Below are positions 8,874-54,889 of a stretch of DNA of 64,000 nt, one piece after another. The notes under the pieces are model-generated. The model was given only the letters and a program-made list of their open reading frames with translations, was not told where the DNA came from and searched no databases. The stretch covers positions 124,001-188,000 of the forward strand of contig NZ_BJTV01000001.1 in NCBI RefSeq assembly GCF_007176755.1, in the 5' to 3' direction. A program made the position numbers and the translations under genes. Position 1 is the stretch's first letter. Every line of letters starts with the position of its first letter. This stretch comes from Streptomyces sp. 1-11. Lineage in GTDB: Bacteria; Actinomycetota; Actinomycetes; Streptomycetales; Streptomycetaceae.

Positions 8874-9307
8874 GGGTGGCGCCCGTAGGGGTGGTGCCGG
8901 GGCAGGGGTGCCGTAGGGGTGGTGCCTGGGCTGGGGGGCGGGTGGTTGCCGTGGGGGTGGTGTAGGGGCTGGTGTGCGGGGGTGTGGGTGGCTCGGGGTT
9001 TGGTTCGCCCCCTCCGCCCCTTCCCGTCCCTGGGAGGGGACTCCGTCCCCTGTGACCCCTGCTGGGGGCTGCCGCCCCCAGGCCCCCGCTTCGGCCCTGG
9101 ACGGGCCTCGTCCTCAAACGCCGGACGGGCTGATAGTGCCGGACCCCGCCTTCAGGGCACCGGACGGGCTGACAGCCGGACCCCGCCTCCGTAGCACCGG
9201 AGACGGGCTGACAGTGCCGGCCCCGCCCTCATGGCGCCGGACGGGCTGGTAGTGCGGACCCCGCTTTCAAGGTGCCGGGCTGGCAGTGGCAGTTCCGGAG
9301 CCCCCCT
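8874..9307. repeat. Intergenic repeat tract (two repeat families)
   Basis: 8874-8970 is G-rich with repeated GTAGGGGTGGTGCC units. 9000-9290 contains a block of a type common in Streptomyces genomes, with a hairpin (CTGGGGGC/GCCCCCAG near 9061-9080) and the phrase CTCAAACGCCGGACGGGCTG. Four degenerate copies of a roughly 45-base unit then follow, CCGGACGGGCTGACAGTGCC with GGACCCCGCC. It separates convergent genes and no coding sequence is supported. Confidence 0.7.
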
Positions 9308-37946: not shown

Positions 37947-38248
37947 CGTAGGGTCCGAACCGGAACACCAAGATCCACGAGCATCCGCGCAGCCGGACAC
38001 GTGTGATCAGGGGCAGGCCCAGGACACGCACGCCGACCGGCGGCGCCGGGTCCGGCTCGGCGATCCCGCACATCGACTCACGCACCCGGAACCACGCTTG
38101 TTTCCCGCCATTTCAAGCCCTGAAACAAGATTTTTGATGTGACTTACGCGACGATGAACGGGCCCGACCTGACCTTCGCGGTCTTGGAGGCGTAGCCTTT
38201 ATTCCCGCTGTCCATAACCTTGTGAAGCGGAAGAGGGCGGTTGCCGCC
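37947..38248 (+). promoter_or_regulatory. Leader and promoter region of sucA
   Basis: About 300 bases with no gene. TTTCA-AGCCC-TGAAA at 38111-38125 is a perfect 5-base inverted repeat. The stretch 38126-38140 (ACAAGATTTTTGATG) is markedly AT-rich for this genome. These are candidates for the promoter or an operator of the 2-oxoglutarate dehydrogenase gene. Confidence 0.4.
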
Positions 38249-41200
38249 GTGTCGCCACAGTCCCCCAGTAACTCGAGCATCTCGACCGACGACCAAGCCG
38301 GGAAGAACCCCGCTGCCGCGTTCGGTCCCAACGAGTGGCTCGTCGACGAGATCTATCAGCAGTACCTCCAGGACCCGAATTCGGTAGACCGTGCCTGGTG
38401 GGACTTCTTCGCCGACTACAAGCCGGGCGCGCCCGCCGCGTCGGCTCCGGCAGGTACTGCGGCCGCGGGGGCCGCAGGGACCACCACCCCGGCTCCCCCG
38501 GCCCAGCCCGCCGCTCCGGCTGCTCCCGCCGCTCCGGCCCAGGCCGCTCCGGCTGCTCCGGCGCCCGCGGCCGCCCCGAAGCCCGCCGCGGCCCCGGCCG
38601 CCGCTCCGGCACCCTCCGCTCCCGCCCCCGCGGCGAAGGCGGCGGCCCCCGCCCCGGCGAAGCCGGCGACGCCCGCACAGGCGCCGGCCCAGCCGAAGCC
38701 CAAGGCCGCCCCCGCCGCCGAGGCGCCCGAGGGTCCGGAGTACGTGACGCTGCGCGGTCCGTCCGCCGCCGTCGCGAAGAACATGAACGCCTCGCTGGAG
38801 CTGCCGACGGCCACCTCGGTCCGCGCGGTCCCGGTGAAGCTGCTGTTCGACAACCGGATCGTCATCAACAACCACCTGAAGCGCGCCCGGGGCGGGAAGA
38901 TCTCCTTCACGCACCTGATCGGCTTCGCGATGGTGCAGGCCATCAAGGCCATGCCGTCGATGAACCACTCGTTCGGCGAGAAGGACGGCAAGCCGACCCT
39001 CGTCAAGCCGCCGCACGTCAACCTGGGCCTGGCCATCGACCTGGTGAAGCCCAACGGCGACCGCCAGCTCGTCGTGGCCGCCATCAAGAAGGCCGAGACG
39101 CTGAACTTCTTCGAGTTCTGGCAGGCCTACGAGGACATCGTCCGCCGCGCCCGCGACGGCAAGCTGACGATGGACGACTTCACCGGCGTGACGGTCTCGC
39201 TGACCAACCCCGGCGGCCTCGGCACCGTCCACTCCGTGCCGCGCCTCATGCCCGGCCAGTCGGTGATCATGGGCGTCGGCTCCATGGACTACCCGGCCGA
39301 GTTCCAGGGCACCAGCCAGGACACGCTGAACAAGCTCGGCATCTCGAAGGTCATGACGCTCACGTCGACCTACGACCACCGGGTGATCCAGGGCGCCGCC
39401 TCCGGCGAGTTCCTGCGCCAGGTCGCGAACCTGCTGCTCGGCGAGAACGGCTTCTACGACGACATCTTCGAGGCGCTGCGCATCCCCTACGAGCCGGTCC
39501 GCTGGCTCAAGGACATCGACGCCTCGCACGACGACGACGTCACCAAGGCCGCCCGGGTCTTCGAGCTGATCCACTCCTACCGGGTCCGCGGCCACGTCAT
39601 GGCCGACACCGACCCGCTGGAGTACCAGCAGCGCAAGCACCCCGACCTGGACATCACCGAGCACGGCCTCACCCTGTGGGACCTGGAGCGCGAGTTCGCC
39701 GTCGGCGGCTTCGCCGGCAAGTCGATGATGAAGCTGCGCGACATCCTCGGCGTGCTGCGCGACTCGTACTGCCGCACCACCGGCATCGAGTTCATGCACA
39801 TCCAGGACCCCAAGCAGCGCAAGTGGATCCAGGACCGCGTCGAGCGCCCGCACTCCAAGCCGGAGCGCGAGGAGCAGCTGCGCATCCTGCGCCGCCTGAA
39901 CGCGGCGGAGGCCTTCGAGACCTTCCTGCAGACGAAGTACGTCGGCCAGAAGCGCTTCTCGCTGGAGGGCGGCGAGTCCGTCATCCCGCTGCTGGACGCG
40001 GTCATCGACTCGGCGGCCGAGTCCCGCCTGGACGAGGTCGTCATCGGCATGGCCCACCGCGGCCGGCTGAACGTCCTCGCCAACATCGTCGGCAAGTCGT
40101 ACGCGCAGATCTTCCGCGAGTTCGAGGGCAACCTCGACCCGAAGTCGATGCACGGCTCCGGCGACGTGAAGTACCACCTGGGCGCCCAGGGCACCTTCAC
40201 CGGCCTGGACGGCGAGCAGATCACGGTCTCGCTGGCCGCCAACCCGTCCCACCTGGAGACCGTCGACCCGGTCATCGAGGGCATCGCCCGCGCCAAGCAG
40301 GACATCATCAACAAGGGCGGCACGGACTTCACGGTCCTGCCGGTGGCGATCCACGGCGACGCGGCCTTCGCGGGCCAGGGCGTGGTGGCCGAGACCCTGA
40401 ACATGTCGCAGCTGCGCGGCTACCGCACCGGCGGCACGGTCCACATCGTCATCAACAACCAGGTCGGCTTCACCGCGGCCCCCGAGTCCTCGCGTTCCTC
40501 CATGTACGCGACGGACGTGGCCCGCATGATCGAGGCCCCGATCTTCCACGTGAACGGCGACGACCCGGAGGCCGTCGTGCGCGTCGCGCGGCTCGCCTTC
40601 GAGTTCCGCCAGGCGTTCAACAAGGACGTGGTGATCGACCTCATCTGCTACCGCCGCCGCGGTCACAACGAGTCGGACAACCCGGCCTTCACCCAGCCGC
40701 TGATGTACGACCTGATCGACAAGAAGCGCTCGGTGCGCAAGCTCTACACCGAGTCCCTGATCGGTCGTGGCGACATCACGCTGGAAGAGGCCGAGCAGGC
40801 CCTGCAGGACTACCAGGGCCAGCTGGAGAAGGTCTTCACGGAGGTCCGCGAGGCCACGTCCCAGCCGGCCTCCGGCCCGGTGCCGGACCCGCAGGCCGAC
40901 TTCCCGGTCGCCGTGAACACCGCGATCTCCACGGAGGTCGTGAAGCGGATCGCCGAGTCCCAGGTCAACATCCCGGACTCCTTCCACGTCCACCCGCGTC
41001 TGCTGCCGCAGCTGCAGCGCCGGGCGACGATGGTCGAGGACGGCACGATCGACTGGGGCATGGGCGAGACCCTCGCCGTCGGCTCCCTCCTGCTGGAGGG
41101 CACCCCGGTCCGCCTGTCCGGCCAGGACTCCCAGCGGGGCACCTTCGGCCAGCGTCACGCGGTCCTCATCGACCGCGAGACGGGCGAGGAGTTCACGCCG

Positions 41201-42097
41201 CTGATGTACCTCGCCGAGGAGCAGGCGCGGTACAACGTCTACAACTCCCTGCTCTCCGAGTACGCGGTCATGGGCTTCGAGTACGGCTACTCGCTGGCCC
41301 GTCCCGACGCGCTCGTCATGTGGGAGGCGCAGTTCGGCGACTTCGTCAACGGCGCGCAGACGGTGGTCGACGAGTACATCTCGGCGGCGGAGCAGAAGTG
41401 GGGCCAGACGTCCGGCGTCACCCTCCTCCTGCCCCACGGCTACGAGGGCCAGGGCCCGGACCACTCCTCGGCCCGTGTCGAGCGCTTCCTGCAGCTCTGC
41501 GCCCAGAACAACATGACGGTCGCCATGCCGACCCTCCCGTCGAACTACTTCCACCTCCTGCGGTGGCAGGTGCACAACCCGCACCACAAGCCGCTGGTCG
41601 TCTTCACCCCGAAGTCGATGCTGCGCCTCAAGGCCGCCGCGTCGAAGACGGAGGAGTTCACCTCGGGTCAGTTCCGCCCCGTCATCGGCGACGCCGGTGT
41701 GGACCCGTCCGCGGTCCGCAAGGTCGTCTTCGTGGCCGGCAAGCTGTACTACGACCTCGAGGCCGAGCGGGTCAAGCGCGGCGTCACGGACACGGCGATC
41801 ATCCGCATCGAGCGGCTGTACCCGCTGCCGGGCGCCGAGATCCAGGCGGAGGTCAACAAGTACCCGAACGCCGAGAAGTACCTGTGGGCGCAGGAGGAGC
41901 CGGCGAACCAGGGTGCCTGGCCGTTCATCGCGCTCAACCTGATCGACCACCTGGACCTGGCGGTCGGCGCTGACATCCCGGCCGGCGAGCGGCTGCGGCG
42001 CATCTCGCGTCCGCACGGCTCGTCCCCGGCGGTGGGCTCCGCGAAGCGGCACCAGGCCGAGCAGGAGCAGCTGGTGCGAGAGGTGTTCGAGGCGTAG
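38249..42097 (+). CDS. sucA: Multifunctional 2-oxoglutarate decarboxylase/dehydrogenase E1-E2 (KGD type)
   Basis: A 1282-residue TCA-cycle enzyme. The N-terminal 40-60 residues ([20 protein letters not shown]) match E1o; next comes a Pro/Ala-rich linker (residues 65-160); then an E2-type acyltransferase domain with [17 protein letters not shown]; then the thiamine-dependent E1 domain with [32 protein letters not shown] and [17 protein letters not shown]. This fused layout is typical of actinobacteria (KGD/OdhA). It carries out oxidative decarboxylation of 2-oxoglutarate and also carboligation. GTG 38249 is preceded by GAGGGCGG. GTG 38222 has no ribosome site. Confidence 0.96.
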
Positions 42098-42340: not shown

Positions 42341-45300
42341 TCAGCCCAGGTAGGGCTCGAAGTCCCAGTAGGGGCGGGTGCGTTGGCGGGCGGAGATGGT
42401 GTGGGGGTGCTGGGCGCCCAGGGTGCGGGTGAGGCCCAGCAGGCCGTCGTCCTCCAGCTTGCCGGCCTCCTCGTGCTCCCGGGCGGCCCGCAGGTCGGCG
42501 GCCAGCGCCACCTGGCAGGAGAGCGTGAGCGGGTGCTCGTGCCCCAGCGTGTGCCGGGCCCGGCGCAGGGTCTCCCGGCTCAGCTCCACCGCGTCGGTGA
42601 TCCGGTCGCCCAGGTTGCGGGCGCTGGCCGCGTTGAGGGCGCAGCCGAGGACCCAGGGGTGGTCGGCGCCGAGGGTGGCGGTGAGGCCCGCGAAGGACGC
42701 CTCGAACATGGACAGCGCCTCGGCGCGTTCACCCGCGGCCTGCATGACGAGTCCGGTGTTGGACAGCATGCCGGTGGCGACCGGGTGGGCCGGGCCGAGC
42801 AGCGCCCGGTAGCCGACCTCGGCCCGGTCGATCAGCTCCCGGGCCTGGGCGAGGTCGCCGTGCTCCCGCAGGTAGTTGCCGTAGTTGGTGGTGAAGGCCA
42901 GGGTCCGGTAGTGCTCACGGCCGTGCACCTGCGCCAGCTGCTCGAGGAGGTTCGCCATCTCTGGCCCGAGGTCCTGGGTGTGCCCGCCTTCCCTGCGGCG
43001 GCACATGACGAGCTGGCCGCGGGCCGAGAGGGTCTGCGGATGCCGCGCGCCGAGCACCTGCAGACTCAGCCGGACCACGGTCTCCTGACGGGCCAGCGCG
43101 TCCCGGTACCGGCCCAGCAGCCGCAGGTCGTGGGCGACGGCGCCGCCCGAGTTGAGGGTGCTGATGTGCCGGGCGCGCAGCACGTTGTCCCGTCTGGCGA
43201 GGGTGTCCAGGTCGAGTTCGTACGCCTCCTGGTAGCGGCCGAGCAGGCGCAGTCCGACACCGTGGTTGTGCCGGGCGATCAGGGCGGGGCCCTCGTCCGG
43301 GCCGAGCAGTCTGCCGTAGCCGTCGAGGACTTCGCTCTGCAGCTCGTACGCCTCGTCGTAGCGGCCCAGGTGGCGCAGGCTGGCGGCCATGGCGCCCTTG
43401 GTGGACAGCTCGGCCAGCTCGGAGCGCGGTTCGGCGGCGCCGAGACGCTGGTGGACGGCGCGGTCGAGCTCGTAGGCGTCGCGGAACCGGCCGCTGGCCC
43501 GCAGGATGTTGCTCTCCTGCGTGGTGAGGTCGAGCATCGGCTGGGCCAGCGGGTCCATGATCCTCGACCAGTTGTCGCGGATGCGCCGGGCCAGGTCGAG
43601 GCCGCCCTTGTACTCGCCGCTGCGGTAGCAGTAGCGCAGACAGTTCAGCACGGTCTCCTGGACGCGCGGCTGGGCGCTGCTGAGGGCGCCCGAGGGTTCC
43701 AGGTGGGGCAGCAGCTCGGCGTACCGGGGCCAGTTGCGGCTGTCCAGCGGGTTGCCGGGGTCGGCCTGGGCCAGCAGGGTGCGGACCGCCTGGCGGTGCA
43801 CGATCCGGCTGTCCTCGCTGGTCAGCTTGGTGACGATGTCGTGGACCAGCCGGTGCATGTGGACCGACTCCTGGTGCGGGCCCATCTCGACGCCGACCGG
43901 GCCGCGGGTCTCCCGGGTCAGCACCGAGTAGTTGACCAGGGTGTCCAGGGCCCGGGTCCAGGCGGTCAGGTCGCTGGACATCCAGCGCAGCTGCTCGGGC
44001 AGGTCGGCGTGCGGGTACGCGCGGATGAGGCCGAGCGGGATGCGTCCGGGGGCGAACGACGTGCACAGGCCCAGGATGTCGATGGTCTGCGGCTGGGCGC
44101 CGCGCAGCCGGTTGAGCAGTATCGACCAGGACGTCATCGACGACCGCGGGAAGCCCTCGCCGGTGGCGGGCTCGTCCACCGTGGACAGCCGGCGTTCACG
44201 CACCATGCGCAGGTACTCGGGCACCTCCATGCGTGACTCGCCGAGCCAGGAGGCGGCCTGCACCAGCGGCAGCGCCACGTCGCCGAACTCGGCGGCGACC
44301 TCGTCGGCCTCGGCGGCGCTGATGTGCGGCGCGCGGCGCAGCAGGTAGGCGGTGGACTCGGCGCGCAGGAAGGCCGGGATCTCGAGGATGTCGGTGTGCT
44401 CGCTCCAGCCGCGGTTGCGGGAGGTGACGAGGACGTGGCCCGCACCCTGCGGGAGCAGGGTGTCGATGCCGTCGGTGTCGTCCCAGCCGTCGAAGATCAG
44501 CAGCCAGCGGCCGTAGGGCTCACCGCGGCGCAGGGCCTCGCGGACGGCGCGGATGCGCTCGCCGGGCTCGCTGCCGACCCGCAGGTCGAGTTCCACGGCG
44601 AGTTCGCCGAGCCGGTCGCGCTGGATGTTGCGGTCGTCGGAGTTGACCCACCACACCACGTCGTAGTCGGTGCTGAAGCGGTGCGCGTACTCGGCGGCGA
44701 GCTGGGTCTTGCCGATGCCGGACATGCCGAGCAGCGTGCAGACGGCGGCGCCCCGGCCGGCGTCGGCCAGTTGCTGGTGGAGGCCGGTGAGCAGGTCGTC
44801 CCGGCCGGTGAAGCGCGGGTTGCGGCGCGGGACCTCGCCCCAGATCTCGCAGCGGTTCTCCGGGTAGCGGGCCCGGTGGGCGGTCGGCCGCGGGACCCGG
44901 CGGCGCTCCAGGCCCAGCCGGCGCAGCAGCCGCTCCTCGGCGGCCTCCTCGCTCAGCCCCCACAGGCTGGCGGGTTCGAGGACCGCGGTGGCCGGCAGCA
45001 GTGACCGGTTGGTGAGGTTGACGGCGGCGAACCGGTCGGCGTTGGCCGCGACGAAGCCGCGCAGCGCGTCGTTCCACTCCCCCGCCGGGCGCGGGCCGAG
45101 TTCGAAGAACCAGTCGTCGAGGACGAGCAGCACCGGGCCGGAGGCCAGCAGCAGGTCGGAGAGGGAGTCCTCCAGCGGGATCTCGCGCGGCGGGTCCCAG
45201 CGTTGCAGTGTGGCCTGATGCCCGTGGCTCTCCAGGCACTGGGCGATCCAGGCCGCCCAGGCGCGGTGGTAGCCGGGGAAGACCACCAGGATGCGTTCGG

Positions 45301-45343
45301 GTGCCAGGGCCCCGTCCCCGCCCGACCGCCGCAGATCCGCCAT
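42341..45343 (-). CDS. fxsT: FxSxx-COOH system TIR/NB-ARC/TPR protein
   Basis: A 1000-residue STAND protein. Residues 15-130 form a TIR-like domain (ERILVVFPGYHRAWAAWIAQ). The NB-ARC domain starts near residue 180 (NPRFTGRDDLLTGLHQ) with P-loop VCTLLGMSGIGKTQLA (206-213) and later VLVTSRNRGW. The C-terminal 500 residues are TPR repeats (GRYDEAYELQSEVLDGYGRL and about ten others), ending with WDFEPYLG, the usual C-terminus of this family. Such proteins act as regulated ATPase/NLR-like effectors or sensors, with the TPRs binding partner proteins. It is 75 bases downstream of the HExxH gene, on the same strand. No radical-SAM FxsB or FxsC is next to it. Confidence 0.88.
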   Translation of the reverse strand: MADLRRSGGDGALAPERILVVFPGYHRAWAAWIAQCLESHGHQATLQRWDPPREIPLEDSLSDLLLASGPVLLVLDDWFFELGPRPAGEWNDALRGFVAANADRFAAVNLTNRSLLPATAVLEPASLWGLSEEAAEERLLRRLGLERRRVPRPTAHRARYPENRCEIWGEVPRRNPRFTGRDDLLTGLHQQLADAGRGAAVCTLLGMSGIGKTQLAAEYAHRFSTDYDVVWWVNSDDRNIQRDRLGELAVELDLRVGSEPGERIRAVREALRRGEPYGRWLLIFDGWDDTDGIDTLLPQGAGHVLVTSRNRGWSEHTDILEIPAFLRAESTAYLLRRAPHISAAEADEVAAEFGDVALPLVQAASWLGESRMEVPEYLRMVRERRLSTVDEPATGEGFPRSSMTSWSILLNRLRGAQPQTIDILGLCTSFAPGRIPLGLIRAYPHADLPEQLRWMSSDLTAWTRALDTLVNYSVLTRETRGPVGVEMGPHQESVHMHRLVHDIVTKLTSEDSRIVHRQAVRTLLAQADPGNPLDSRNWPRYAELLPHLEPSGALSSAQPRVQETVLNCLRYCYRSGEYKGGLDLARRIRDNWSRIMDPLAQPMLDLTTQESNILRASGRFRDAYELDRAVHQRLGAAEPRSELAELSTKGAMAASLRHLGRYDEAYELQSEVLDGYGRLLGPDEGPALIARHNHGVGLRLLGRYQEAYELDLDTLARRDNVLRARHISTLNSGGAVAHDLRLLGRYRDALARQETVVRLSLQVLGARHPQTLSARGQLVMCRRREGGHTQDLGPEMANLLEQLAQVHGREHYRTLAFTTNYGNYLREHGDLAQARELIDRAEVGYRALLGPAHPVATGMLSNTGLVMQAAGERAEALSMFEASFAGLTATLGADHPWVLGCALNAASARNLGDRITDAVELSRETLRRARHTLGHEHPLTLSCQVALAADLRAAREHEEAGKLEDDGLLGLTRTLGAQHPHTISARQRTRPYWDFEPYLG

Positions 45344-45417: not shown

Positions 45418-46707
45418 TCACAGCGCATTTTGGGCCGTCACGCCGAGACCGGCGTGGTGGCGCTCCATGCCCTGGACGAACTCCCTTCCCGCTGGGGTCA
45501 GTTCATCGGATTCCAGGAGGAGGGACAAGGCCTGCCCCACCTCCGCGCGGAGCACCTCGAACCGCTCGCCGGCCCGGCGCCGCCACGCCGGGGCGGCCGC
45601 GGCGCCGGTGCGCACCCTCCACCACAGGTCGGTCAGGGCCAGATGCGCGTAGGCGCCCTGCAGCACGGCCGGGGCCGGACGGAGGTCGGGGCGCCAGCCG
45701 ACCCGGTGCACCGCGCGACCGCCCGGCGCGCACAGCGGGACCACTTCGTCCAGGGCCGCCAGCTTGGTGTGGTGGGTCTCGTGCACCAGGGACTCGGCGA
45801 GTTCCCGCGCCGTGTCCGGCAGCTGGACCAGCGCGGCACCGGGCGCCGACCTGAGCGTGGCGCTCATCGGGGTGGCGCCCGGCCCGGCCGCGGCCAGCGG
45901 GACCACGGCGCGCAGCAGGGCACCGGTCTCGGCGGCGCGCGGCCCGTCGACCGCGGTCAGCAGTTCGCGGGCACGGCGCCAGGGAACGGCCCACGCCTCC
46001 CAGGGGGAGTCGGTGCGGCCGGCGGCCCGCAGCTGTCCCGGGACGGCGCCGGGCGGGGGCGCCCGGTACGGATCGAGGTCGTCGAGGCGGACGGTGCCGC
46101 CGGGCAGCGTGCGCAGCGCGCTCCAGCCGGTGCCGTCCCCGGCCCGCCGGACCTCGCCGGACCCGGGCCGCCCCGCGGGGTGCGGCAGGACCGTCCCGGT
46201 GTGCCCGTCGCCGTCGGCGACCCGCGTTCCGTCCGGTCCCGTCTCCAGCCGGGCCAGGCCCGAGGGGCAGCGCAGCACGCCGAGGCCGGGCAGCACCAGC
46301 AGGCCGGTGGGCACGGTCAGGGTTCCGGTCACCGGGTGGCCCGCGCGGACGGCCGCGGCGACGGCGACACCGCCCAGATGGGCCAGCCGCCGTTCGAACG
46401 CGGCTCCCGGCGGCGCGGCGAGCGCGGCGGCCAGCCAGGCGCCGGTCGTCGGGTAGTCGAGCACCTCGCGAACGGCGGCCGGGCCGGTCCGCTCCGCGGC
46501 CGCCAGCAGCGCCCAGGCCCGCTCGAACTCCCCGTGCGCGGCGGGCCCCAGGAGCCGGCGCTGCCGGTCGGTGCGCACCAGGAGGGACTTCAGGAGCAGC
46601 ATGCGACGCGCGTGGACCGCGGCACGCAGTGTCTGCGTACCCCGGGGGGTGGGGCGGGTTCCGGCGAGCGCCCCGAAGACCTCGGCGGGTATCGGCGCCG
46701 AGGTCAT
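45418..46707 (-). CDS. HExxH-motif peptide-modifying enzyme
   Basis: A 429-residue protein with the diagnostic motif SLVHETHHTKLAAL (residues 309-313, HETHH), followed by GWRPDLRPAPAVLQGAYAHL and LWWRVR. NCBI families name such proteins HExxH-motif peptide-modification enzymes or 2-oxoglutarate-dependent peptide beta-hydroxylases; the HExxH binds the metal. The N-terminal 200 residues hold only low-similarity helices. ATG 46707 overlaps the stop of the small upstream gene as ATGA, which makes the pairing of precursor and enzyme likely. The longer frame to 46815 is discarded. The substrate peptide is probably the 89-residue protein next door. Confidence 0.83.
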   Translation of the reverse strand: MTSAPIPAEVFGALAGTRPTPRGTQTLRAAVHARRMLLLKSLLVRTDRQRRLLGPAAHGEFERAWALLAAAERTGPAAVREVLDYPTTGAWLAAALAAPPGAAFERRLAHLGGVAVAAAVRAGHPVTGTLTVPTGLLVLPGLGVLRCPSGLARLETGPDGTRVADGDGHTGTVLPHPAGRPGSGEVRRAGDGTGWSALRTLPGGTVRLDDLDPYRAPPPGAVPGQLRAAGRTDSPWEAWAVPWRRARELLTAVDGPRAAETGALLRAVVPLAAAGPGATPMSATLRSAPGAALVQLPDTARELAESLVHETHHTKLAALDEVVPLCAPGGRAVHRVGWRPDLRPAPAVLQGAYAHLALTDLWWRVRTGAAAAPAWRRRAGERFEVLRAEVGQALSLLLESDELTPAGREFVQGMERHHAGLGVTAQNAL

Positions 46708-46973
46708 TCCCGCTCGTCCGGGAGCCGGCCGGGCTCGCCGAGTCCGGCTGAAAACGTACGTACGCGGGACGGCTGCACCTCGCCCTCGCTGTCGCTGAAC
46801 CAGACCTGCTGGCACTCGGTGGCATCCCGCAGGACACGGTCGACGGCCGCGGTCAGGGCCGGATCATCGAGAAACCGCAAGGTACGCAGGTCGACGCCGA
46901 TGAGGTCGGGCAGGCGCGCGGCATGCCCGGCGTCCCGGCCGGGGGCGGCCACCCCGCTCCACTGCTCCGCCAC
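46704..46973 (-). CDS. Probable FxsA-like peptide precursor (variant C-terminus)
   Basis: An 89-residue protein from GTG 46973, with GGGAGGAG as a good ribosome site. The middle, LPDLIGVDLRTLRFLDDPAL then TAAVDRVLRDA, matches the leader region of FxSxx-COOH precursors (LxDLRxxPLxxLxxLDDxxL, RVLxEA). Classical precursors end in Phe-x-Ser-x-x; this one continues as QQVWFSDSEGEVQPSRVRTF and SAGLGEPGRLPDERE and has no such terminus. The gene stop overlaps the HExxH enzyme start by ATGA, so it is the likely substrate. It could alternatively be a degenerate or decoy precursor. Confidence 0.7.
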   Translation of the reverse strand: MAEQWSGVAAPGRDAGHAARLPDLIGVDLRTLRFLDDPALTAAVDRVLRDATECQQVWFSDSEGEVQPSRVRTFSAGLGEPGRLPDERE

Positions 46974-47064: not shown

Positions 47065-50000
47065 TCAACTCCGGTCAAGTTCTGACCAGTTCGCCCACTC
47101 TCCGGTCCACGGCCACCAGGGCGGGGCGATCCGCTCCCAGTCCTCGTCCGGCAGCTCCCGTGGCACTCGCGCCAGTCCCTCCCCCGCCGCCAGCTCCGCC
47201 CCGACCCGCCGGGTCAGCTCGACGTCCGCCCAGTCGACCTGGCGCAGCGCCCCGGCCAGCCGCTGCCACTGCTCCCCGGCCGCCCGGCAGGCCTCGCGCG
47301 CCGCGCCGGGCCTGCCCATCAGGGCCAGCACCACCGCGCTGCCGTGCCGCGCCCGGGCGGAGGTCGCCGAACCCGGGTCCTCCCCGTGCGCGGCCCGCGC
47401 CTCCCGTTCCGCGTTCTCGTACGCCTGCAGGGCGTCCACCAGCACCGGCGCCCCGGCCCGGTGCCAGCCCTCCAGCCGCACCCGCGCCAACTGCAGCCAG
47501 ACCTCGGCCCGTACGGCCGCGTCGGCCGCCGCGCGCACCGCCTGGCCGAGCAGATGCCGGCTCTCGTACAGGTCCGGCAGGAAGCCGAGGTGGCGGAAGC
47601 GCTGGGCGAGCGCGCCGCCGACCAGTCCCTGCAGCCGCCCGCGGTGCGCGGACCGGGCGGGCAGCGCCTGCAACGCCTCGCGCAGTACGTACTCGGCCCG
47701 GTCCACGATCCGCGCGCCGTCCAGCGCCGAGGCCCGCCGCAGCAGCGACTCGCCCCAGGAGGTGAGGATCCGGCCGCGCAGGGCGCCGTCGGCGGGGGCG
47801 AGCAGCGCTGCCCGCTCATAGGCCTCGTCGGCCTCGGGGGCCTCGCCCGCCGCGTCGTGGAAGGCGGCCAGCGCGGCCAGGCTGGGCAGCAGCAGACCGG
47901 GGTCGTCCCCGGCGGCGCCCCTGGCCCGCAGCAGCGCCCGCCGGGTCTCGGCGTCCCCGGCGCCGGCCTCCCGCAGCGCCCGTGCCAGGTCGAGCAGGGC
48001 GAGCCCGCGCACGGCGTCGGGGGCGTACTCCAGGTCCAGCGTGGCGCAGGCCTCGCGGAGCTCGCCGACGGCGGCGGCGGGGCGCCGCAGGTCCAGCAGG
48101 ATCCGGCCGCGCAGCAGCACTCGGGAGCGGTGGGCGGTGACGGCCCAGGGCACCCGGCCCGCGCCCGCCGGCACCCGGCGCGGTGCCGGGCCGGCGTCAC
48201 GATCCGCGTCACCGGCGGCGGACCTGGCGGGCTCGGCTGGCCCGGCGGGCTCGGTGGGCTCGGTGGGCCCGGCGGGCACTACGGGCTCTGCGGACCCGGC
48301 GGGTTCTGCGAATCGAGCGGGCTCGGCGGGTTCTGCGGACCCGGCGACCTCGGCGGGCTCGGCGGACACTACGGGCTCTGCGGACCCGGCGGGCTCCTGC
48401 GAGCCCGCGGACTGGGAGGACTCGGCGGCCACTGCGGGCCCTGCATGCTCTGCGGACCGGGCGGACCCGGCGGCCGGTTCCGTCCCACCGGCCGCCCCCT
48501 CGGCCGCCCCGCCAGCCGTCCCGTCGGCCGTCTCACCGGCCGTCCCGCCGCTGGCGTCCGGGCTCGACCCGGCGTCCTCCCGGGCGCCGTCCGGTCGCGC
48601 GGGGGTGTCCTGGTCGTCCTGGTGTCCGGTCCGGGACCAGTGCCGTGCCTGCTCGGTCAGGGACGGCCAGGGAGCGGTCTCGGGGTCCAGGACGTCCAGG
48701 GCGGCGGTGAGCTGGCCGTCCTCCGCCGTCAGGTGCCACAGCTCACGGCGGCAGGCGGCGAGTTCCAGGGCGGCCTCGGCGCGCTCGCGGCCGCCGGGTC
48801 CGGCCGCGGCGTGGGCCGCGGCGAGTTCGGCCACTGCCTCGCGCAGCAGTTCGGTCCGGCGTCCCGTCGTGCGCGCGGCCGCCGTGCCCGCCTCGGCGCG
48901 CAGGATACGGCCGAGGACGAGGTGGGGCCGTACGGCGGCACCGGTGTCCGGAGGCACCGCCGGGGCCTGGCCGGTCGCGGCGAGGGCCTGTTCCCGGGCG
49001 CGGCGCAGCACCTCCGGGTCGGCCAGGTGGCGCCACTGGTCCAGCAGGCGCTCGGCCTCGGTGAGCGGGTCGGGGGTGACGAGGTCCGGCAGGTAGAAGC
49101 GCAGGACGCGGGCCGGGATGCGGGCGAACAGTTCGGCCTCGACGCTGCCGCCGTCCTCCGGCGGGACGCCTTCCGGCGGGAGCCGGCCGGCGTCGGCGGA
49201 CGCGTCGTGGTCGGCGAGCCGGGCCGCGGCGAGGGCGGCGAAGTTGCGGGTGCCCCGGCCGAAGTGCCGCTCCACGTAGGCCGAGCAGTGCTTGAGGACC
49301 AGCCCTGCGGTGTCCTGGTCGAGGGAGGACAGCAGCAGGTTCTGGACCCGGCCCGAGTAGGCGAAGCAGGGCTGCTCCCCGGTGCCCGGGAGCTGCCTGA
49401 GCAGCCCGCCGAGCAGCACCTCGGCCAGCTCCATGGGCCCGGTGTCCGGCAGCATCGCCCGCTGGACCAGTTGCATCACGGGCAGGGTGAGCGGAGCCGC
49501 GGCCAGGTAGACCGCCAGCCGCACGGCACCGGGCGAGGCTCCGGCGCGGAAGGCCCGCAGCAACTCGTCGTCGCTGCGCGGCTCGTGGTGGACGTAGACC
49601 TCGCCGATCTCGCCGTCGGCCCGCAGGGCGTCGTCGCGCGCAACGTCGCCGTGCGGCGGGCCATCGCCGTGCCGGGCCGGGCCGGCGGGCGCCGGCGGTG
49701 CCGGGGCGGTGAGCGCCGCCCACGCCCGCTCGCTGACGGGACCGCTGCCGCCGAGCAGCCGGGCGAAGGCCTCGAACGCCTCCGGAGTGGGCTGCAGCAC
49801 CGGCACCGGCCGGGCGCCCGGCGCCGGTTGCTCCCAGGGCTCGTCGTCGGGCACGAAGGCCAGCCGCCCGGCCACCTCGGCGGGGCGCACCAGCAGGCCG
49901 GGCTCGGCGGGCAGCGCGGTGCGGCCCCAGAGCCGGGGCGGCAACGGCTGGACGACGGCCAGCGGGGCGGTGCGCGGCCACTGGTGCAGCAGCCGCTGCG

Positions 50001-50829
50001 CGCCGCCGTTCTGCCACAGCGGCCCCACGCAGTCGCTGATCACGAAGGTGATCCGGCGGCCGGTGGGGTCGTGCAGTTCGTCGGCCGGGCGCAGCCGGGT
50101 GTGTCGTCCCGGGCCGGCGGTGGTGCCGACGAGCAGGGCGCCGGAGTCGTCGGCGTACAGGTGGTGGACGCGGACGGAGGCGAACGCGCCGGACTGCTGG
50201 CAGGCCTGCCGCAGTTCCTCGACGAGCTGTCCCCAGACGGCCATGTTCGGCCCGGTGTCCATGAGCAACTGGACGTCGCAGCGCCGGCGGCGGCCGGGCC
50301 GGGTGACCGGGAGCAGAATGCCGCTGGCGGCGGCCCGCTCGGCGGTGGCCTCCTCGTCGATCCGCTCGTCCCGGGGCGGGGCGGCGGCGACCCGGTAACG
50401 GCCGAGGGCGCGCAGCGCCTTCTCCAGGCCGAGCAGTCCGGGCAGGGCGCCGGCGGCGGGCGCCCGGACGGGGAAGGCGGCGGGGGCGCCGGAGTCGCCG
50501 TGCGAGCGTGCCGGAAGGCCCGGGGTGAGCAGCGACACCGGGGCGGCGGGGGCGTCCGCTCGGGGCCGGGGCGTTTCGGCGGCCGGCGTCCTGGCACCGG
50601 CGTCCGCCCGGACATCGGCCTCGGCGTCGGCGTCGGCGGGCGCGGGGTCAGGTCCCGTGGCGGGTGGGTCCGCCGGGCCGGTGCCCGGCCGCTGTCCGGG
50701 CGCGTCGCGGGGCGCGGCGGCGCCGAGCCGGCGGGCCAGCCAGACCGCGTCGGCCACGTCCTCCGCGGTGAGGTCGAGCCCGCCCTGGCGCAGCTTGCCG
50801 ATCAGCTCGTCCAGGCGCATCCCGGGCAT
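47065..50829 (-). CDS. SAV_2336-type conflict-system protein with vWA-like domain
   Basis: A 1254-residue protein. The N-terminus RLDELIGKLRQGGLDLTAED then VADAVWLARRL is characteristic of SAV_2336-family proteins. Around residues 185-290 there is a vWA-like domain (VQLLMDTGPNMAVWGQLVEE, RITFVISDCVGPLW) with a degenerate metal site. A middle helical domain follows, then a low-complexity linker near residues 790-970 made of AGSAEPAEP-type repeats, then a TPR-rich C-terminal region of about 350 residues. In ternary conflict systems vWA, MoxR and VMAP proteins act together. ATG 50829 (MPGM) follows the MoxR stop by seven bases. The longer frame to 51063 overlaps MoxR and is rejected. Confidence 0.85.
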   Translation of the reverse strand: MPGMRLDELIGKLRQGGLDLTAEDVADAVWLARRLGAAAPRDAPGQRPGTGPADPPATGPDPAPADADAEADVRADAGARTPAAETPRPRADAPAAPVSLLTPGLPARSHGDSGAPAAFPVRAPAAGALPGLLGLEKALRALGRYRVAAAPPRDERIDEEATAERAAASGILLPVTRPGRRRRCDVQLLMDTGPNMAVWGQLVEELRQACQQSGAFASVRVHHLYADDSGALLVGTTAGPGRHTRLRPADELHDPTGRRITFVISDCVGPLWQNGGAQRLLHQWPRTAPLAVVQPLPPRLWGRTALPAEPGLLVRPAEVAGRLAFVPDDEPWEQPAPGARPVPVLQPTPEAFEAFARLLGGSGPVSERAWAALTAPAPPAPAGPARHGDGPPHGDVARDDALRADGEIGEVYVHHEPRSDDELLRAFRAGASPGAVRLAVYLAAAPLTLPVMQLVQRAMLPDTGPMELAEVLLGGLLRQLPGTGEQPCFAYSGRVQNLLLSSLDQDTAGLVLKHCSAYVERHFGRGTRNFAALAAARLADHDASADAGRLPPEGVPPEDGGSVEAELFARIPARVLRFYLPDLVTPDPLTEAERLLDQWRHLADPEVLRRAREQALAATGQAPAVPPDTGAAVRPHLVLGRILRAEAGTAAARTTGRRTELLREAVAELAAAHAAAGPGGRERAEAALELAACRRELWHLTAEDGQLTAALDVLDPETAPWPSLTEQARHWSRTGHQDDQDTPARPDGAREDAGSSPDASGGTAGETADGTAGGAAEGAAGGTEPAAGSARSAEHAGPAVAAESSQSAGSQEPAGSAEPVVSAEPAEVAGSAEPAEPARFAEPAGSAEPVVPAGPTEPTEPAGPAEPARSAAGDADRDAGPAPRRVPAGAGRVPWAVTAHRSRVLLRGRILLDLRRPAAAVGELREACATLDLEYAPDAVRGLALLDLARALREAGAGDAETRRALLRARGAAGDDPGLLLPSLAALAAFHDAAGEAPEADEAYERAALLAPADGALRGRILTSWGESLLRRASALDGARIVDRAEYVLREALQALPARSAHRGRLQGLVGGALAQRFRHLGFLPDLYESRHLLGQAVRAAADAAVRAEVWLQLARVRLEGWHRAGAPVLVDALQAYENAEREARAAHGEDPGSATSARARHGSAVVLALMGRPGAAREACRAAGEQWQRLAGALRQVDWADVELTRRVGAELAAGEGLARVPRELPDEDWERIAPPWWPWTGEWANWSELDRS

Positions 50830-50836
50830 CCGTCCC

Positions 50837-51850
50837 TCACCTCGTACGGTCGAGCGGCTGCATGAGCATCTCGGCGATCCGCTCCCGGGTGAGGCTCTGC
50901 GCACGCGGGTCGTGCCGGGTGAGGAAGAGGGCGTTGAGGAGCTGGTCGGCGGCGAGCACCTCGCCGGGTTCGCGCTCCAGGAACCTGCGGATGAGGTCCG
51001 CGCCGCCGGCGACACCGTCCGCGCCGAGGTGCGCCTCGACCATCGCGGTGAGCTGCTCCTCACCGGGCGGGTCGAGCTCGAGCTGGACGCAGCGCCGCAG
51101 CAGCGGGGCGGGGAAGTCGCGTTCGCCGTTGGAGGTCAGGACGATCACCGGGAAGGCGGTGCAGGCGATGCGCCCGCCGTGCACGGCCACCCGGTCGCCG
51201 TCGTGGGTGAGCACCTCGACGACGGGTTCACGGTCGGCCAGCCGCTCCAGCTCGGGGATGGAGAACTCGCCTTCCTCCAGGGTGTTGAGCAGGTCGTTGG
51301 GCAGGTCGAGGTCGCTCTTGTCGAGTTCGTCGATGAGCAGTACGCGGGGCTGTTCGGCGGGCAGCAGCGCGGTGCCGAGCGGGCCGAGCCGGACGTAGGA
51401 ACCGATGCCGGGCGCGGCCGTCTCGCCCTGGGCGCCGCGGGCCCGTTCGAGCTGGACGTCCTGCAGCCGGCCTATGGCGTCGTACCGGTAGAGGCCGTCC
51501 TGGAGGGTGGTGCGGCTGACGATGGGCCAGCGCAGCACCTTGCCGAGCCCGAGCTCATGGGCGATGGCGTACGCCAGGGTCGACTTGCCGGTGCCCGGGT
51601 TGCCGGTGACCAGCAGCGGCCGACGCAGGTACAGGGCCGCGTTGACCGCGTCCACCTCGGCCGGCCGGGGCGCGTAGCTCTCCACCAGACGGCGGCGGAC
51701 GCCGAGCCTGCGGGCGCTGCTGGGGTCCTCGGTGCCGGCCTCCGCATCCCCGCGGGAGGCCGTGAAGTCGCGCCAGGGCGGCGGGGGCGGCAACCGCCGC
51801 ATGCCGTCGTGCGGCTGACCCACTCCGCTGTAGATCCGCCAGTCGTTCAC
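50837..51850 (-). CDS. MoxR-type AAA+ ATPase of the ternary system
   Basis: A 337-residue AAA+ protein with Walker A LLVTGNPGTGKSTLAYAIAH (83-90), Walker B VLLIDELDKSDLDLPNDLL (170-179), sensor 1 VIVLTSNGERDFPAPLLRRC. The N-terminal 60 residues are Pro-rich. MoxR ATPases remodel partners that carry vWA domains; the next gene encodes a vWA-like protein, starting seven bases further on. This fits the MoxR-vWA-VMAP conflict systems described by Aravind and colleagues. It heads the second block after a 470-base gap. Confidence 0.9.
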   Translation of the reverse strand: MNDWRIYSGVGQPHDGMRRLPPPPPWRDFTASRGDAEAGTEDPSSARRLGVRRRLVESYAPRPAEVDAVNAALYLRRPLLVTGNPGTGKSTLAYAIAHELGLGKVLRWPIVSRTTLQDGLYRYDAIGRLQDVQLERARGAQGETAAPGIGSYVRLGPLGTALLPAEQPRVLLIDELDKSDLDLPNDLLNTLEEGEFSIPELERLADREPVVEVLTHDGDRVAVHGGRIACTAFPVIVLTSNGERDFPAPLLRRCVQLELDPPGEEQLTAMVEAHLGADGVAGGADLIRRFLEREPGEVLAADQLLNALFLTRHDPRAQSLTRERIAEMLMQPLDRTR

Positions 51851-52318: not shown

Positions 52319-54889
52319 TCAGCCGTCGGGAGCGGCGAGCGGCGGCGGCCGCATCGTCCCGCCGGCGCGCGGAGGGCGGTCGGGCGGGTCGAACAGCACC
52401 GCCAGCTTTCCGTGCAGTCCCCGGGCCCGGGCCGACTCCGGGTCGTGGAGCCGGATACGCAGTTCACGCACCGGTTCGTGCAGTCCTTCGGCGTGCCGGG
52501 CGGCCCCCACCACATGAGCGGCCTGTTCGTAGAAGTCCTTGCACTCGTCGTGGTCGTGCCCGTCCCGGCGCCACAGCACCACCGGATGGCCGGCCATCAG
52601 CGCCTCCCTCATCGCCGCCTGCCCCTCCCCGCTCGCCACCGGTCCGCAGTAGACCGGGACACTGGCGTGGTCCAGCACCGACAGGGTGCTGTAGTACAGG
52701 TACGGACTCGCGGAGCGGGCCGCGGCCACGTGGCCGTCGGCCGGGGACCGGCCGTGCAGCGGCTCGTGCGTGAGCGGGCCGCCGGCCACGCCCCGCCAGC
52801 GCTTGCGCCACTCCGGGGCGGGCGGCCGCTCGTTGCGCCGCAGGTCCCGTATGACGACGGTCCGGCGCATGCCGAGCGGCATCGACCGTTCGTCCACGAA
52901 GTCGTCGTCGTCATCGTCGTCACCGCCATCACTGCCATCACCGCCGTCATCGCCTGCAGCGCGCTCGCCGTGCGAGCGGCCGAGGCCGTCGCGGTGGCCG
53001 CGGTCCCCGGCCCGGAAGGCGCCTGGCTGCTCGGGCAGGAGCTGCCACTCGTCCACCGGCAGGTCGAACAGCTTGCGGGGCAGGAAGACCTCGATCCCCG
53101 CCAGGTGCTCACCGTGGTCCCCGAGGTTCAGCGCGCGGTCCAGCGGGGCGCGCAGCACCGCCGCGAGCTCTTCGACGCGCGCTCCCCGGTCGTCGGCGGC
53201 GACCGGGGTGACGTCCAGTCCGTCGTGGATCAGCTCCACGCTCCAGGGGTGCAGCCCGCCGTACATGGACGCGCCGATCCTGACCAGGACGTCGGTACGG
53301 CCGGCGGTCACCGTCCCGGCGGCCACGGGCGGTGACTCGCGGACGACGAACCGGGGACCGGGAAGGGCGGAGGGTTCGGACGCGGCCCGGAGCCCGTACG
53401 CGACCGGAGGTGCGGACCCTGCTGGGGCGGTGAGCGCGGTCGGGGACGCGGCCGTGGTCCCGGATGCCGCCGAGGTCCCCGGTGCCGCCGAGGTCCCCGG
53501 TGCCGCCGAGGTCCCCGGTGCGGCCGCCGTTTCCGGCGTGGCCGAGGTCGCCGGTGCGGCCGCCGCGGTGCGCCGGGCGTCCGGCGCTTCGTCGGATGCT
53601 TCGTGAGGCGCTTCGTTCACTCCGTCCGGCGGCCCGTTCCCCGCGCCCACGACCCTAGCGTCCGCCGGGCGCCCGGCCGGTCCGCCGTCCGGCCCCCGGC
53701 CGTCGATCCCCTCCAGCAGTCCCCGGATCGCCCCGCCCACGGCCCAGTGCCGATGCCGTCCGGCCTGCGCGCCCAGCCATTCGGTGAACGCGCCGAGCCG
53801 GGCCGGGTCGGTCTCACCGGGGCGCTCCCGCACGGTCTTGCGCAGCACCACCGCCGCGTACAGCAGGACGGCGTCGAGATCGACGAGCGTGCCGCCGCCC
53901 TCCGAGTCCAGGGTGCGCAGTCCGTACAACAGGGCCGCGCCCTCGCGCCAGGTACGCACGTTGCGCGGCACCAGCGAGCGCAGCCGTTCGCCGCGCACCC
54001 GCTCCTTGACCTCCTCCACCAGGTGGACGATCTCTCCCGCTCCGGCGGGCGGCGGCAGCTCGGCGAGGTGGGCGTAGAGCCGGGCGCGGAGTTCGGCGGT
54101 GATGCCGGACACGGGTGGTGCGAGCGCGGACAGGCCTGCCTGGAGCGTGGTCCAGTTCGCGTACGGCGACGGGTCGTCGAGGAGGCTCAGATGGTGCCGG
54201 TCATGGGCGCGCAGCACCTCGCGCAGGACCCCGGCGGTGTCGCGCCGGTCGAGCAGCTCGTGCAGCGCGGTGACCGGGACGGCGACGCCCTCCTCGCGGC
54301 GGCGGCCCTTGATGACCCCGACGACCGAGCCCTGCCGCAGGTCGAGCACGGGCCCGCCGGACAGTCCGCCGATCGGCAGACTGCCGCCGAGCAGCAGCGC
54401 GCGGGCGTCGGAACCCGCGAGTTCGCCGGTACCGTGCCGGACACCCAGCTCGCCCGTCTGCAGGGACCAGCCGTACAGCCCCAGCGGGGCGCGGGCCCCG
54501 GGCTCCCGGTCGCCCAGCCAGAGGCACCGCACGTCCTCCGCGTCCTCGACCCGGACCAGCGCGAGGTCGGGGAACGGCCAGGGGTCACGGAGCGAGTCCG
54601 GGTCCTCGGGCCGCGGCGCGAGCAGTACGGCCGTCCCGGTGCCCGAGCGCTCCCCCCAGGCGTCGGCGGCGGGCTCGTCGGTGCGTTCCTGCCAGGTCAC
54701 GCGTAAGACGTTCTCCCCTCGGCACACCGCGGCTCCCCCCTTCCCCACGACATGGGCGCAGGTCAACAACCAGCCCGGGGCCACGAAGAACCCCGAGCCC
54801 CAGTACGGGTCACGGTCCGTTGCATACCCGTCACCCGCTGCGCCGATGCGCGCCAGGGAGGGGCGCACCATCTCGTCGAAGGCGCTCAT
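52319..54889 (-). CDS. Trypsin-like protease fused to VMAP C-terminal domain
   Basis: An 856-residue protein. Residues 1-210 are a trypsin-like protease with the full triad: His 46 (LLTCAHVVGK), Asp 108 (FPDLALVRVED), Ser 177 (IGGLSGGPVLDLRQG). There is no signal peptide, so it acts in the cytoplasm. Residues 240-390 are helical (a VMAP middle or effector-associated region), then a Ser/Ala/Pro/Thr linker with 18-base DNA repeats. The VMAP-C domain follows (LHPWSVELIHDGLDVTPVAA, EVFLPRKLFDLPVDEWQLLP), interrupted by GDDDDDDDF. Such vWA-MoxR-associated proteins act as conflict effectors or adaptors. Start ATG 54889 overlaps the upstream TCO1 gene stop. Confidence 0.9.
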   Translation of the reverse strand: MSAFDEMVRPSLARIGAAGDGYATDRDPYWGSGFFVAPGWLLTCAHVVGKGGAAVCRGENVLRVTWQERTDEPAADAWGERSGTGTAVLLAPRPEDPDSLRDPWPFPDLALVRVEDAEDVRCLWLGDREPGARAPLGLYGWSLQTGELGVRHGTGELAGSDARALLLGGSLPIGGLSGGPVLDLRQGSVVGVIKGRRREEGVAVPVTALHELLDRRDTAGVLREVLRAHDRHHLSLLDDPSPYANWTTLQAGLSALAPPVSGITAELRARLYAHLAELPPPAGAGEIVHLVEEVKERVRGERLRSLVPRNVRTWREGAALLYGLRTLDSEGGGTLVDLDAVLLYAAVVLRKTVRERPGETDPARLGAFTEWLGAQAGRHRHWAVGGAIRGLLEGIDGRGPDGGPAGRPADARVVGAGNGPPDGVNEAPHEASDEAPDARRTAAAAPATSATPETAAAPGTSAAPGTSAAPGTSAASGTTAASPTALTAPAGSAPPVAYGLRAASEPSALPGPRFVVRESPPVAAGTVTAGRTDVLVRIGASMYGGLHPWSVELIHDGLDVTPVAADDRGARVEELAAVLRAPLDRALNLGDHGEHLAGIEVFLPRKLFDLPVDEWQLLPEQPGAFRAGDRGHRDGLGRSHGERAAGDDGGDGSDGGDDDDDDDFVDERSMPLGMRRTVVIRDLRRNERPPAPEWRKRWRGVAGGPLTHEPLHGRSPADGHVAAARSASPYLYYSTLSVLDHASVPVYCGPVASGEGQAAMREALMAGHPVVLWRRDGHDHDECKDFYEQAAHVVGAARHAEGLHEPVRELRIRLHDPESARARGLHGKLAVLFDPPDRPPRAGGTMRPPPLAAPDG
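53467..53520. repeat. Three 18-base tandem repeats within the VMAP gene
   Basis: GCCGAGGTCCCCGGTGCC-type units repeat three times exactly or nearly so, giving GTSAAP GTSAAP GTSAAP in the protein linker. Length variation by slippage is likely, without loss of frame. Confidence 0.6.

What the first reader, a model, noticed from the sequence alone, without database searches (positions are those of the whole stretch)
46704..46973. FxsA-like precursor without the FxSxx C-terminus and without radical-SAM FxsB
The central leader segment matches FxSxx-COOH precursors, but the last 30 residues (ending GRLPDERE) carry no Phe-x-Ser-x-x terminus. No radical-SAM or FxsC gene lies in the cluster; an HExxH peptide-modifying gene is fused by ATGA instead. 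This may be a precursor class modified only by the HExxH enzyme, perhaps by beta-hydroxylation of Asp, Ser or Phe in QQVWFSDSEGEVQ.
Basis: partly seen in the sequence, partly recalled or inferred. Interest (0 to 1): 0.75.

Follow-up and report, generated by a model that had tools for sequence, protein, structure and literature searches.

The report
FxSxx-type peptide module without radical SAM
Many Streptomyces carry a predicted conflict (immune-like) operon whose small peptide has kept its address label but lacks both the usual peptide-crosslinking enzyme and the tail that goes with it, keeping one nearly invariant tryptophan and a single predicted iron oxygenase, which makes the peptide's modification simple to test.

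Summary
Window 46973-46704 (minus) encodes an 89-aa FxsA-like precursor that matches only the leader part of TIGR04268 (21.4 bits, cut-off 28) and lacks F-x-S-x-x. It overlaps (ATGA) an intact HExxH gene. No FxsB-type radical SAM reaches its cut-off in this genome. The operon is VMAP, MoxR, SAV_2336 protein, precursor, HExxH enzyme, TIR-NB-ARC-TPR protein (FxsT): the layout Kaur et al. 2020 give for FxSxx-type VMAP systems, minus the radical SAM.

It is not a one-off. 87 HExxH-only loci (window included) were compared, all from the window's genus or titled Streptomyces; the 31 put in an FxsT tree form one clade (SH-aLRT 100). The leader was found in 84; a Trp sits at one column in 82 of 84; none ends in FxSxx or [FY]x[SN]xx. 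Of 20 sister loci with both enzymes, 13 end in [FY]x[SN]xx; 5 of 5 with radical SAM only carry AY[YH]ED-like ends. Peptide tail and enzyme set thus change together, on few independent events. Tails evolve fast but under constraint (omega 0.61; leader 0.27). The HExxH model matches SjiH (Z 38.5) and ChlH (Z 28.3). Oxidation near the Trp is inferred, not shown. A new variant of a known kind.

The parts
52319..54889 (-). VMAP protein: trypsin-like peptidase domain plus VMAP-C domain, first gene of the operon
   Evidence: PF20028 VMAP-C 105.2 bits (cut-off 27) and PF13365 Trypsin_2 43.2 bits; a homologue in 74 of 86 other HExxH-only loci
50837..51850 (-). MoxR-type AAA+ ATPase
   Evidence: PF07728 AAA_5 36.4 bits; MadB_ATPase weak match, 54.4 bits against 475; 67-96% identical protein in those HExxH-only loci where it was found
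47065..50829 (-). SAV_2336 N-terminal domain protein, taken as the vWA/TPR component in the scheme of Kaur et al.; start chosen at MPGMRLDE by homology with L048 and L049
   Evidence: NF041121 422.9 bits (cut-off 200); homologous start
46704..46973 (-). FxsA-like precursor: leader (LPDLIGVDLRTLRFLDDPAL...), conserved Trp (QQVW), acidic/Ser-Gly stretch, VRTFSAG motif; no FxSxx
   Evidence: TIGR04268 21.4 bits, profile 1-31/44; comparison over 84 loci and alignment of 55 precursors
45418..46707 (-). alpha-KG-HExxH peptide oxygenase (429 aa), HETHH at residues 309-313, WRPDLRP at 338-344
   Evidence: TIGR04267 142.4 bits (cut-off 40); invariant columns; model versus SjiH Z 38.5 and ChlH Z 28.3
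42341..45343 (-). FxsT: TIR - NB-ARC - TPR protein (AP-ATPase effector in Kaur et al.)
   Evidence: NF040586 763.6 bits (cut-off 300); TIR_2, NB-ARC, TPR_12

Best explanation
A VMAP-MoxR-vWA ternary conflict operon of the FxSxx layout whose peptide module has no radical-SAM enzyme, most likely by loss. The precursor keeps the FxsA leader, which most likely delivers it to the HExxH oxygenase. That enzyme, an Fe(II)/2-oxoglutarate oxygenase, most likely oxidises one or a few residues in the short segment that begins at the conserved Trp (Trp itself, or the Ser/Asp/Glu/Gly residues at +2 to +6), without a preformed cyclophane. The product is then used in the same role as FxSxx peptides, probably as a signal or co-effector for the TIR-NB-ARC-TPR protein. 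Shown here: gene content, leader homology, one HExxH-only clade, the Trp, enzyme family and fold, lack of FxsB over cut-off in this genome. Inferred: loss as the direction, enzymatic activity, site of modification, peptide function.
For: Operon content. Layout equals the FxSxx-type VMAP system in PMC7159879 (section 24) except for the radical SAM. The 31 HExxH-only rows of the FxsT tree are one clade, SH-aLRT 100, one change of state. Leader in 84 of 87 loci; Trp at one column in 82 of 84, one residue later in L094, absent in L147; 30 of 31 thinned representatives keep it; best Trp column in 500 shuffles at most 12 of 84. Leader omega 0.27 (0.22-0.33), tail 0.61 (0.49-0.75) over 29 pairs. HExxH, K315 and WRxDxRP invariant in 15 of 15 aligned clade enzymes; profile hits ChlH E=1.4e-14 and 22nu E=1.3e-39; Z 38.5 to SjiH, 28.3 to ChlH. 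FxsB over cut-off in 4 of 16 genomes of the clade, the window's not among them, so a trans-acting FxsB is not general. Precedent for HExxH action without a radical SAM: PosC/PflC hydroxylate Gln and cleave the backbone (PMC12636437, passages); PesO hydroxylates Pro (PMC13060819, passages).
Against: No chemistry. The Trp may be a recognition residue and not the target. Tails beyond the Trp differ strongly between subclades (4 to 60 residues), so a single product is unlikely. The Trp column of this clade is one residue nearer the leader than the Trp of LWGFxSxx in the alignment, so their homology is likely, not certain. Three related loci with HExxH (L064, L196, L197) have Asn or Ser where the Trp is expected. 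The loci were picked by similarity to the window's genes. Tree support was SH-aLRT only, from a short search.
Confidence: 0.68

Rival explanations
1. The HExxH protein acts as a protease (or oxidative cleaver) that trims the precursor C-terminus and so frees the short Trp-ended or Trp-led peptide; hydroxylation is minor. Kaur et al. called this gene a zincin-like metallopeptidase that releases a C-terminal peptide.
For: PMC7159879 section 24 proposes peptide release; PosC/PflC cleave the backbone oxidatively at a C-terminal ARMD motif, and PflC is proteolytic without leader. In the clade the part after the Trp varies from 4 to 60 residues, as expected of a discarded tail.
Against: Family and fold are those of a solved alpha-KG oxygenase; no motif at the very C-terminus is shared by the precursors listed; the tail still shows omega below 1.
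Confidence: 0.18
2. The precursor gene is a relic: after loss of FxsB the peptide is no longer modified and the HExxH/precursor pair is decaying.
For: No FxSxx; tail omega 0.61 is much weaker constraint than the leader's; tail composition rich in Gly, Arg, Ala and Pro.
Against: 84 of 87 loci keep an open frame with leader and 83 of 84 the Trp; HExxH motif intact in the 16 clade enzymes printed; the clade is deep (FxsT 53-98% identical to the window's).
Confidence: 0.06
3. Another radical-SAM enzyme encoded elsewhere completes the peptide in trans, as in the FxSxx type.
For: 4 of 16 clade genomes hold an FxsB over cut-off at another place; the window's genome has a radical-SAM hit of 26 bits on another contig.
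Against: 12 of 16 clade genomes, the window's own included, have no FxsB over cut-off; the precursors carry no FxSxx or [FY]x[SN]xx terminus, 0 of 84.
Confidence: 0.04

Closest known systems
FxSxx-type peptide-processing module of VMAP ternary systems (Kaur et al. 2020, PMC7159879; NCBIfam TIGR04267/04268/04269, NF040586)
   Same: VMAP, MoxR, SAV_2336 protein, FxsA-type leader, stand-alone HExxH gene, separate TIR-NB-ARC-TPR protein downstream (sister loci)
   Different: No radical-SAM FxsB, no FxSxx terminus; Trp followed by a variable tail, mostly Ser/Gly/acidic at first
RxD and acidic peptide types of VMAP systems (PMC7159879)
   Same: HExxH enzyme with a small precursor and no radical SAM named for these types
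   Different: There the AP-ATPase is fused to the vWA protein; here it is a separate gene. The window precursor has no R-x-D and no run of four acidic residues. The genome's second system (L066) has a fused 1570-aa frame
ChlB/ChlH (PDB 8s5f) and SjiH (22ob)
   Same: HExxH fold and motif
   Different: ChlH acts on Asp and His after a cyclophane is installed (stated in PMC12636437, passages); here no cyclophane synthase of the FxsB kind is encoded. That SjiH too comes from a fused radical-SAM protein is suggested by its PDB molecule name and recalled
PosC/PflC and PesO, HExxH enzymes of other RiPP clusters (PMC12636437, PMC13060819)
   Same: HExxH oxygenase acting without a radical SAM
   Different: Other precursors (Gln run plus ARMD; Pro before R(V/T)DN) and MNIO enzymes in the pfl and pes clusters; no conflict-system genes mentioned in the passages read

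Membership tests
FxSxx-COOH precursor family (TIGR04268) | Whole-protein score over the curated cut-off | tested here: not met
   21.4 bits against 28
FxSxx-COOH precursor family (TIGR04268) | C-terminal F-x-S-x-x | tested here: not met
   Window ends GRLPDERE; 0 of 84 clade precursors match F.S..$ or [FY].[SN]..$. Yardstick: of 20 sister precursors with FxsB and HExxH, 5 match the strict and 13 the looser form
FxSxx-COOH precursor family (TIGR04268) | Leader segment | tested here: met
   Profile positions 1-31 of 44 matched; leader shared with FxSxx-ending precursors in the alignment
FxSxx-COOH precursor family (TIGR04268) | Radical-SAM FxsB in the cluster | tested here: not met
   None over cut-off in the genome
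alpha-KG-HExxH peptide beta-hydroxylase (TIGR04267) | Score over curated cut-off and HExxH motif | tested here: met
   142.4 bits against 40; HETHH at residues 309-313
alpha-KG-HExxH peptide beta-hydroxylase (TIGR04267) | Fold of the solved members | tested here: met
   Model pLDDT 79.8; SjiH Z 38.5, rmsd 2.9 over 392; ChlH Z 28.3, rmsd 3.0 over 308
alpha-KG-HExxH peptide beta-hydroxylase (TIGR04267) | Fe(II)/2-oxoglutarate-dependent peptide hydroxylation | not testable with these tools
   Needs enzyme assay
VMAP ternary conflict system | VMAP-C protein plus MoxR plus vWA component in one operon | tested here: inconclusive
   VMAP-C met (PF20028 105.2 bits) and a MoxR-like AAA ATPase present; the SAV_2336 protein is taken as the vWA component but Pfam gave no vWA hit
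RxD or acidic peptide type (Kaur et al.) | AP-ATPase fused to the vWA protein | tested here: not met
   FxsT is a separate 1000-aa gene, 42341-45343
RxD or acidic peptide type (Kaur et al.) | R-x-D motif or four contiguous acidic residues in the peptide | tested here: not met
   Neither occurs in the 89-aa sequence (read directly)
FxsT (NF040586) | Score over curated cut-off | tested here: met
   763.6 bits against 300

The most novel reading that the evidence does not exclude
A RiPP-like class of its own inside bacterial NLR-type conflict operons: the HExxH oxygenase alone oxidises, or cleaves the backbone at, a conserved Trp of a leader-guided peptide, and peptide tail and enzyme set (radical SAM plus HExxH, radical SAM only, HExxH only) are swapped as units while the TIR-NB-ARC-TPR receptor stays, so that the modified peptide would be a self-made ligand whose chemistry is retuned.
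Probability: 0.2. Interest if true: 0.78.

Novelty: new variant of a known kind. Interest (0 to 1): 0.48.

Why it matters
The HExxH enzymes whose work I could read about act on cyclophane peptides (ChlH) or in clusters with other modifying enzymes (pfl, pes). Here one short precursor and one stand-alone enzyme seem to be the whole modifying set, repeated in more than 80 Streptomyces genomes with natural variation of the tail. This makes the enzyme's own reaction, and the role of the conserved Trp, testable with two genes. It also gives a natural three-way comparison (both enzymes, radical SAM only, HExxH only) inside one family of predicted immune operons, which can show what the peptide must look like for its TIR-NB-ARC-TPR partner.

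Tried and rejected
Frameshift artefact: the +1 frame at the precursor end (seen as the upstream extension of the HExxH ORF) holds no FxSxx terminus, and the zero frame is open in 84 loci, so a sequencing slip is rejected.

Radical SAM in trans: rejected as general, see rivals.

FxsB rarer in genomes of this clade: 4 of 16 against 121 of 150 genomes of the family looks striking, but the family sample spans 17 genera; within the window's own genus I count 23 with FxsB of at least 38 (listed rows; 8 rows were not listed). The contrast is therefore weaker than the family figure suggests and I do not lean on it.

Known anti-phage system: PADLOC gave no relevant hit for the six operon proteins (only weak AAA matches to the MoxR protein and one weak RT-Protease_XI match to the VMAP protein).

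Pfam: no family for the precursor and HExxH protein nor for the SAV_2336 protein.

Phe as target: rejected as a conserved target.

FxsC: no hit in the genome, but the model rang in no control genome either, so absence is only weakly shown.

Literature: FxSxx was found in 4 papers, one relevant; the FxsA/FxsB search gave nothing relevant; family accessions gave PMC7726476 (listing only) and PMC12636437; SjiB/SjiH/ChlBH gave unrelated papers among the 8 listed of 32; a VMAP/vWA/MoxR search and a HExxH/leader/Streptomyces search showed no HExxH-only FxsA clade in their listings, nor did the first two searches. The source data of PMC7159879, which list the peptide types in full, could not be read, so this clade may already be in that table.

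A script with a wrong slice of the HExxH gene was redone; only the printed DNA is used. The listing of flanking frames was cut in output and redone in another form.

Full report
What is there. On the minus strand the window holds one compact operon: VMAP protein with trypsin-like and VMAP-C domains (54889-52319; PF20028 105.2 bits), MoxR-type ATPase (51850-50837), SAV_2336 N-terminal domain protein (50829-47065; NF041121 422.9 bits), the FxsA-like precursor (46973-46704), the HExxH enzyme (46707-45418; TIGR04267 142.4 bits) and FxsT, a TIR-NB-ARC-TPR protein (45343-42341; NF040586 763.6 bits). The precursor stop and HExxH start overlap as ATGA (DNA). The precursor matches TIGR04268 only over positions 1-31 of 44, at 21.4 bits against a cut-off of 28.

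No FxsB in the genome. A search of the whole genome with TIGR04269 gave one match of 26 bits against a cut-off of 370, on another contig. Of 16 genomes with the HExxH-only system (the window's included), 12 have no FxsB over cut-off. In the other four it lies in another locus; the stretches fetched around it (L207, L211, L212, L213) hold an FxsB only 44-47% identical to that of the sister systems (probe from L071). In a sample of the family, 121 of 150 genomes have FxsB over cut-off, but that sample spans 17 genera; in the window's genus it is 23 of at least 38 listed rows, so the contrast is modest.

A conserved clade. A scan of the genome collection (84,980 species by its description) with the HExxH alignment gave 459 relatives, of which the best 80 were kept, all titled Streptomyces. 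In none of these 80 did the FxsB probe hit within the stretch held; several stretches are cut by contig ends. A VMAP homologue was found in 74 of the 86 other than the window; of the 12 misses, 11 stretches are short (7-15 kb) and one (L138) is full length. The loci were chosen by HExxH or precursor similarity, so the set says nothing about how common the system is; in an even draw of 200 genomes of the family, 8 (the window's included) had a precursor of this type and 4 further hits were precursors of FxsB-type loci (one search read).

Precursor anatomy. The leader was found in 84 of 87; the three misses are L053, L155 and L156, whose contigs begin inside or shortly before the HExxH gene. A profile of the leader without the Trp places a Trp at one fixed column in 82 of 84; L094 has it one residue later, L147 has Phe instead. 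None of 84 ends in FxSxx or in the looser [FY]x[SN]xx; four have F-x-S somewhere in the tail (L059, L135, L141, L151). In 500 shuffles of the segments the best Trp column held at most 12 of 84; beyond the conserved one, Trp makes up 12 of 2062 tail residues. Related sequences inflate such counts, but 30 of 31 thinned representatives also keep it. Two places after the Trp stand Ser (33 of 82), Glu (19), Gly (10) or Thr (7); 71 of 82 have an acidic residue within six places. Tails run from 4 to 60 residues. An F-[SP]-[AV] motif occurs in 27 of 84 tails, the window's (VRTFSAG) among them. By the spacing estimate, 19 of the 83 other loci with a leader share the ATGA-type overlap, most of them near kin of the window.

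Selection. Over 29 pairs the ratio of replacement to silent change is 0.27 (0.22-0.33) for leader plus Trp and 0.61 (0.49-0.75) for the tail. The pairs were picked greedily by precursor identity between 0.60 and 0.97, aligned codons only, so gaps are not counted and the pairs are not strictly independent. The tail is thus neither random nor tightly fixed.

Sister systems. Among 20 related loci with FxsB and HExxH between the SAV_2336 gene and FxsT, 17 precursors carry Trp followed by [GAT]-[FY]; 10 end exactly in WGF[DN][SN]xx, 13 in [FY]x[SN]xx, and only 5 in strict FxSxx. L064, L196 and L197 have Asn or Ser in place of the Trp; L191, L204 and L206 run on past the motif. Five loci with FxsB but no HExxH hit in the stretch (L192, L194, L199, L200, L201) have AY[YH]ED or SYHED followed by 2-8 residues and no Trp there; a sixth, distant one (L203) gave no precursor. 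In the alignment the Trp of the HExxH-only clade falls one column before the Trp of LWGF, so their equivalence is likely but needs a one-residue gap. In an FxsT tree of 61 rows (31 HExxH-only, 23 with both including 3 outgroup rows, 4 FxsB-only, 3 with neither on that strand) the HExxH-only rows form one clade (SH-aLRT 100, one change), and so do the FxsB-only rows. The link between Trp and HExxH therefore rests on very few independent events. Since FxsB also occurs in outgroup rows, loss of FxsB in the window's lineage is the simplest reading; the deepest split inside the linked group had support of 85 only.

The enzyme. HExxH, K315 and the WRxDxRP stretch are invariant in 15 of 15 aligned clade enzymes. 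A sequence profile finds the solved ChlH (8s5f, E=1.4e-14) and 22nu (E=1.3e-39, same sequence as 22ob). The AlphaFold2 model (pLDDT 79.8) matches SjiH (22ob; Z 38.5, rmsd 2.9 over 392) and ChlH (8s5f; Z 28.3, rmsd 3.0 over 308), far above all other rows, the next being Z 10.0. ChlH is an alpha-ketoglutarate oxygenase by its PDB title and by PMC12636437 (passages); for SjiH the title gives only the name. This supports oxygenase over zinc protease, but no metal or activity was tested.

How it most likely works. The leader brings the peptide to the HExxH oxygenase; the enzyme oxidises the short segment starting at the Trp; the product serves the VMAP/FxsT machine as FxSxx peptides are thought to do. 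Kaur et al. 2020 (section 24 read in full) predicted that such peptides act as toxin or signal and treated the HExxH gene as a peptidase. Precedents for HExxH reactions without a radical SAM are beta-hydroxylation of Gln with oxidative backbone cleavage (PosC/PflC, PMC12636437, passages) and of Pro (PesO, PMC13060819, passages). Which residue is changed here is not known; my guess is one within the Trp to Trp+6 segment.

Relation to the known. It is not a member of the FxSxx-COOH precursor family (defining features tested and not met) nor of the RxD or acidic types (AP-ATPase not fused, motifs absent). Its enzyme is a member of TIGR04267 by score and fold. As a system it is a variant of the FxSxx-type VMAP peptide module. 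Precursors without a radical SAM were already implied for other types in PMC7159879, and I could not read that paper's source data; hence 'new variant of a known kind' and a middling interest score.

Noticed in passing
L066 (G000:C4:318000-336000), 3063-7775 + and 8016-9893 -: The same genome has a second HExxH system: an HExxH gene facing a 1570-aa frame in which the SAV_2336-like and AP-ATPase/TPR parts are fused, with a candidate precursor (ends PPTLGSSSSANC, L001 2937-3200 minus) and no FxsB hit; it fits the fused layout Kaur et al. give for RxD/acidic types.
   Followed up: partly
L192, L194, L199, L200, L201: Loci with FxsB and FxsT but no HExxH hit in the stretch; precursors carry AY[YH]ED or SYHED plus a few residues. 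A radical-SAM-only counterpart, one clade in the FxsT tree for the four rows included (L194 was not in the tree).
   Followed up: partly
L064, L196, L197: Loci with both enzymes whose precursors have Asn or Ser where the Trp of LWGF is expected (ILNAFDSGVV, VLSDYAERAS).
   Followed up: no
window 48200-48700: The SAV_2336 protein contains a long low-complexity Ala/Glu/Pro/Gly/Ser stretch; the matching part of the translations (L046, L048, L049) looks very different in sequence.
   Followed up: no
window 38222-42097 +: A 1291-aa frame that looks like the multifunctional 2-oxoglutarate dehydrogenase/decarboxylase E1 (named from memory of the sequence, no family search run) lies convergent to the operon end; probably coincidence for a 2-oxoglutarate-dependent module.
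   Followed up: no
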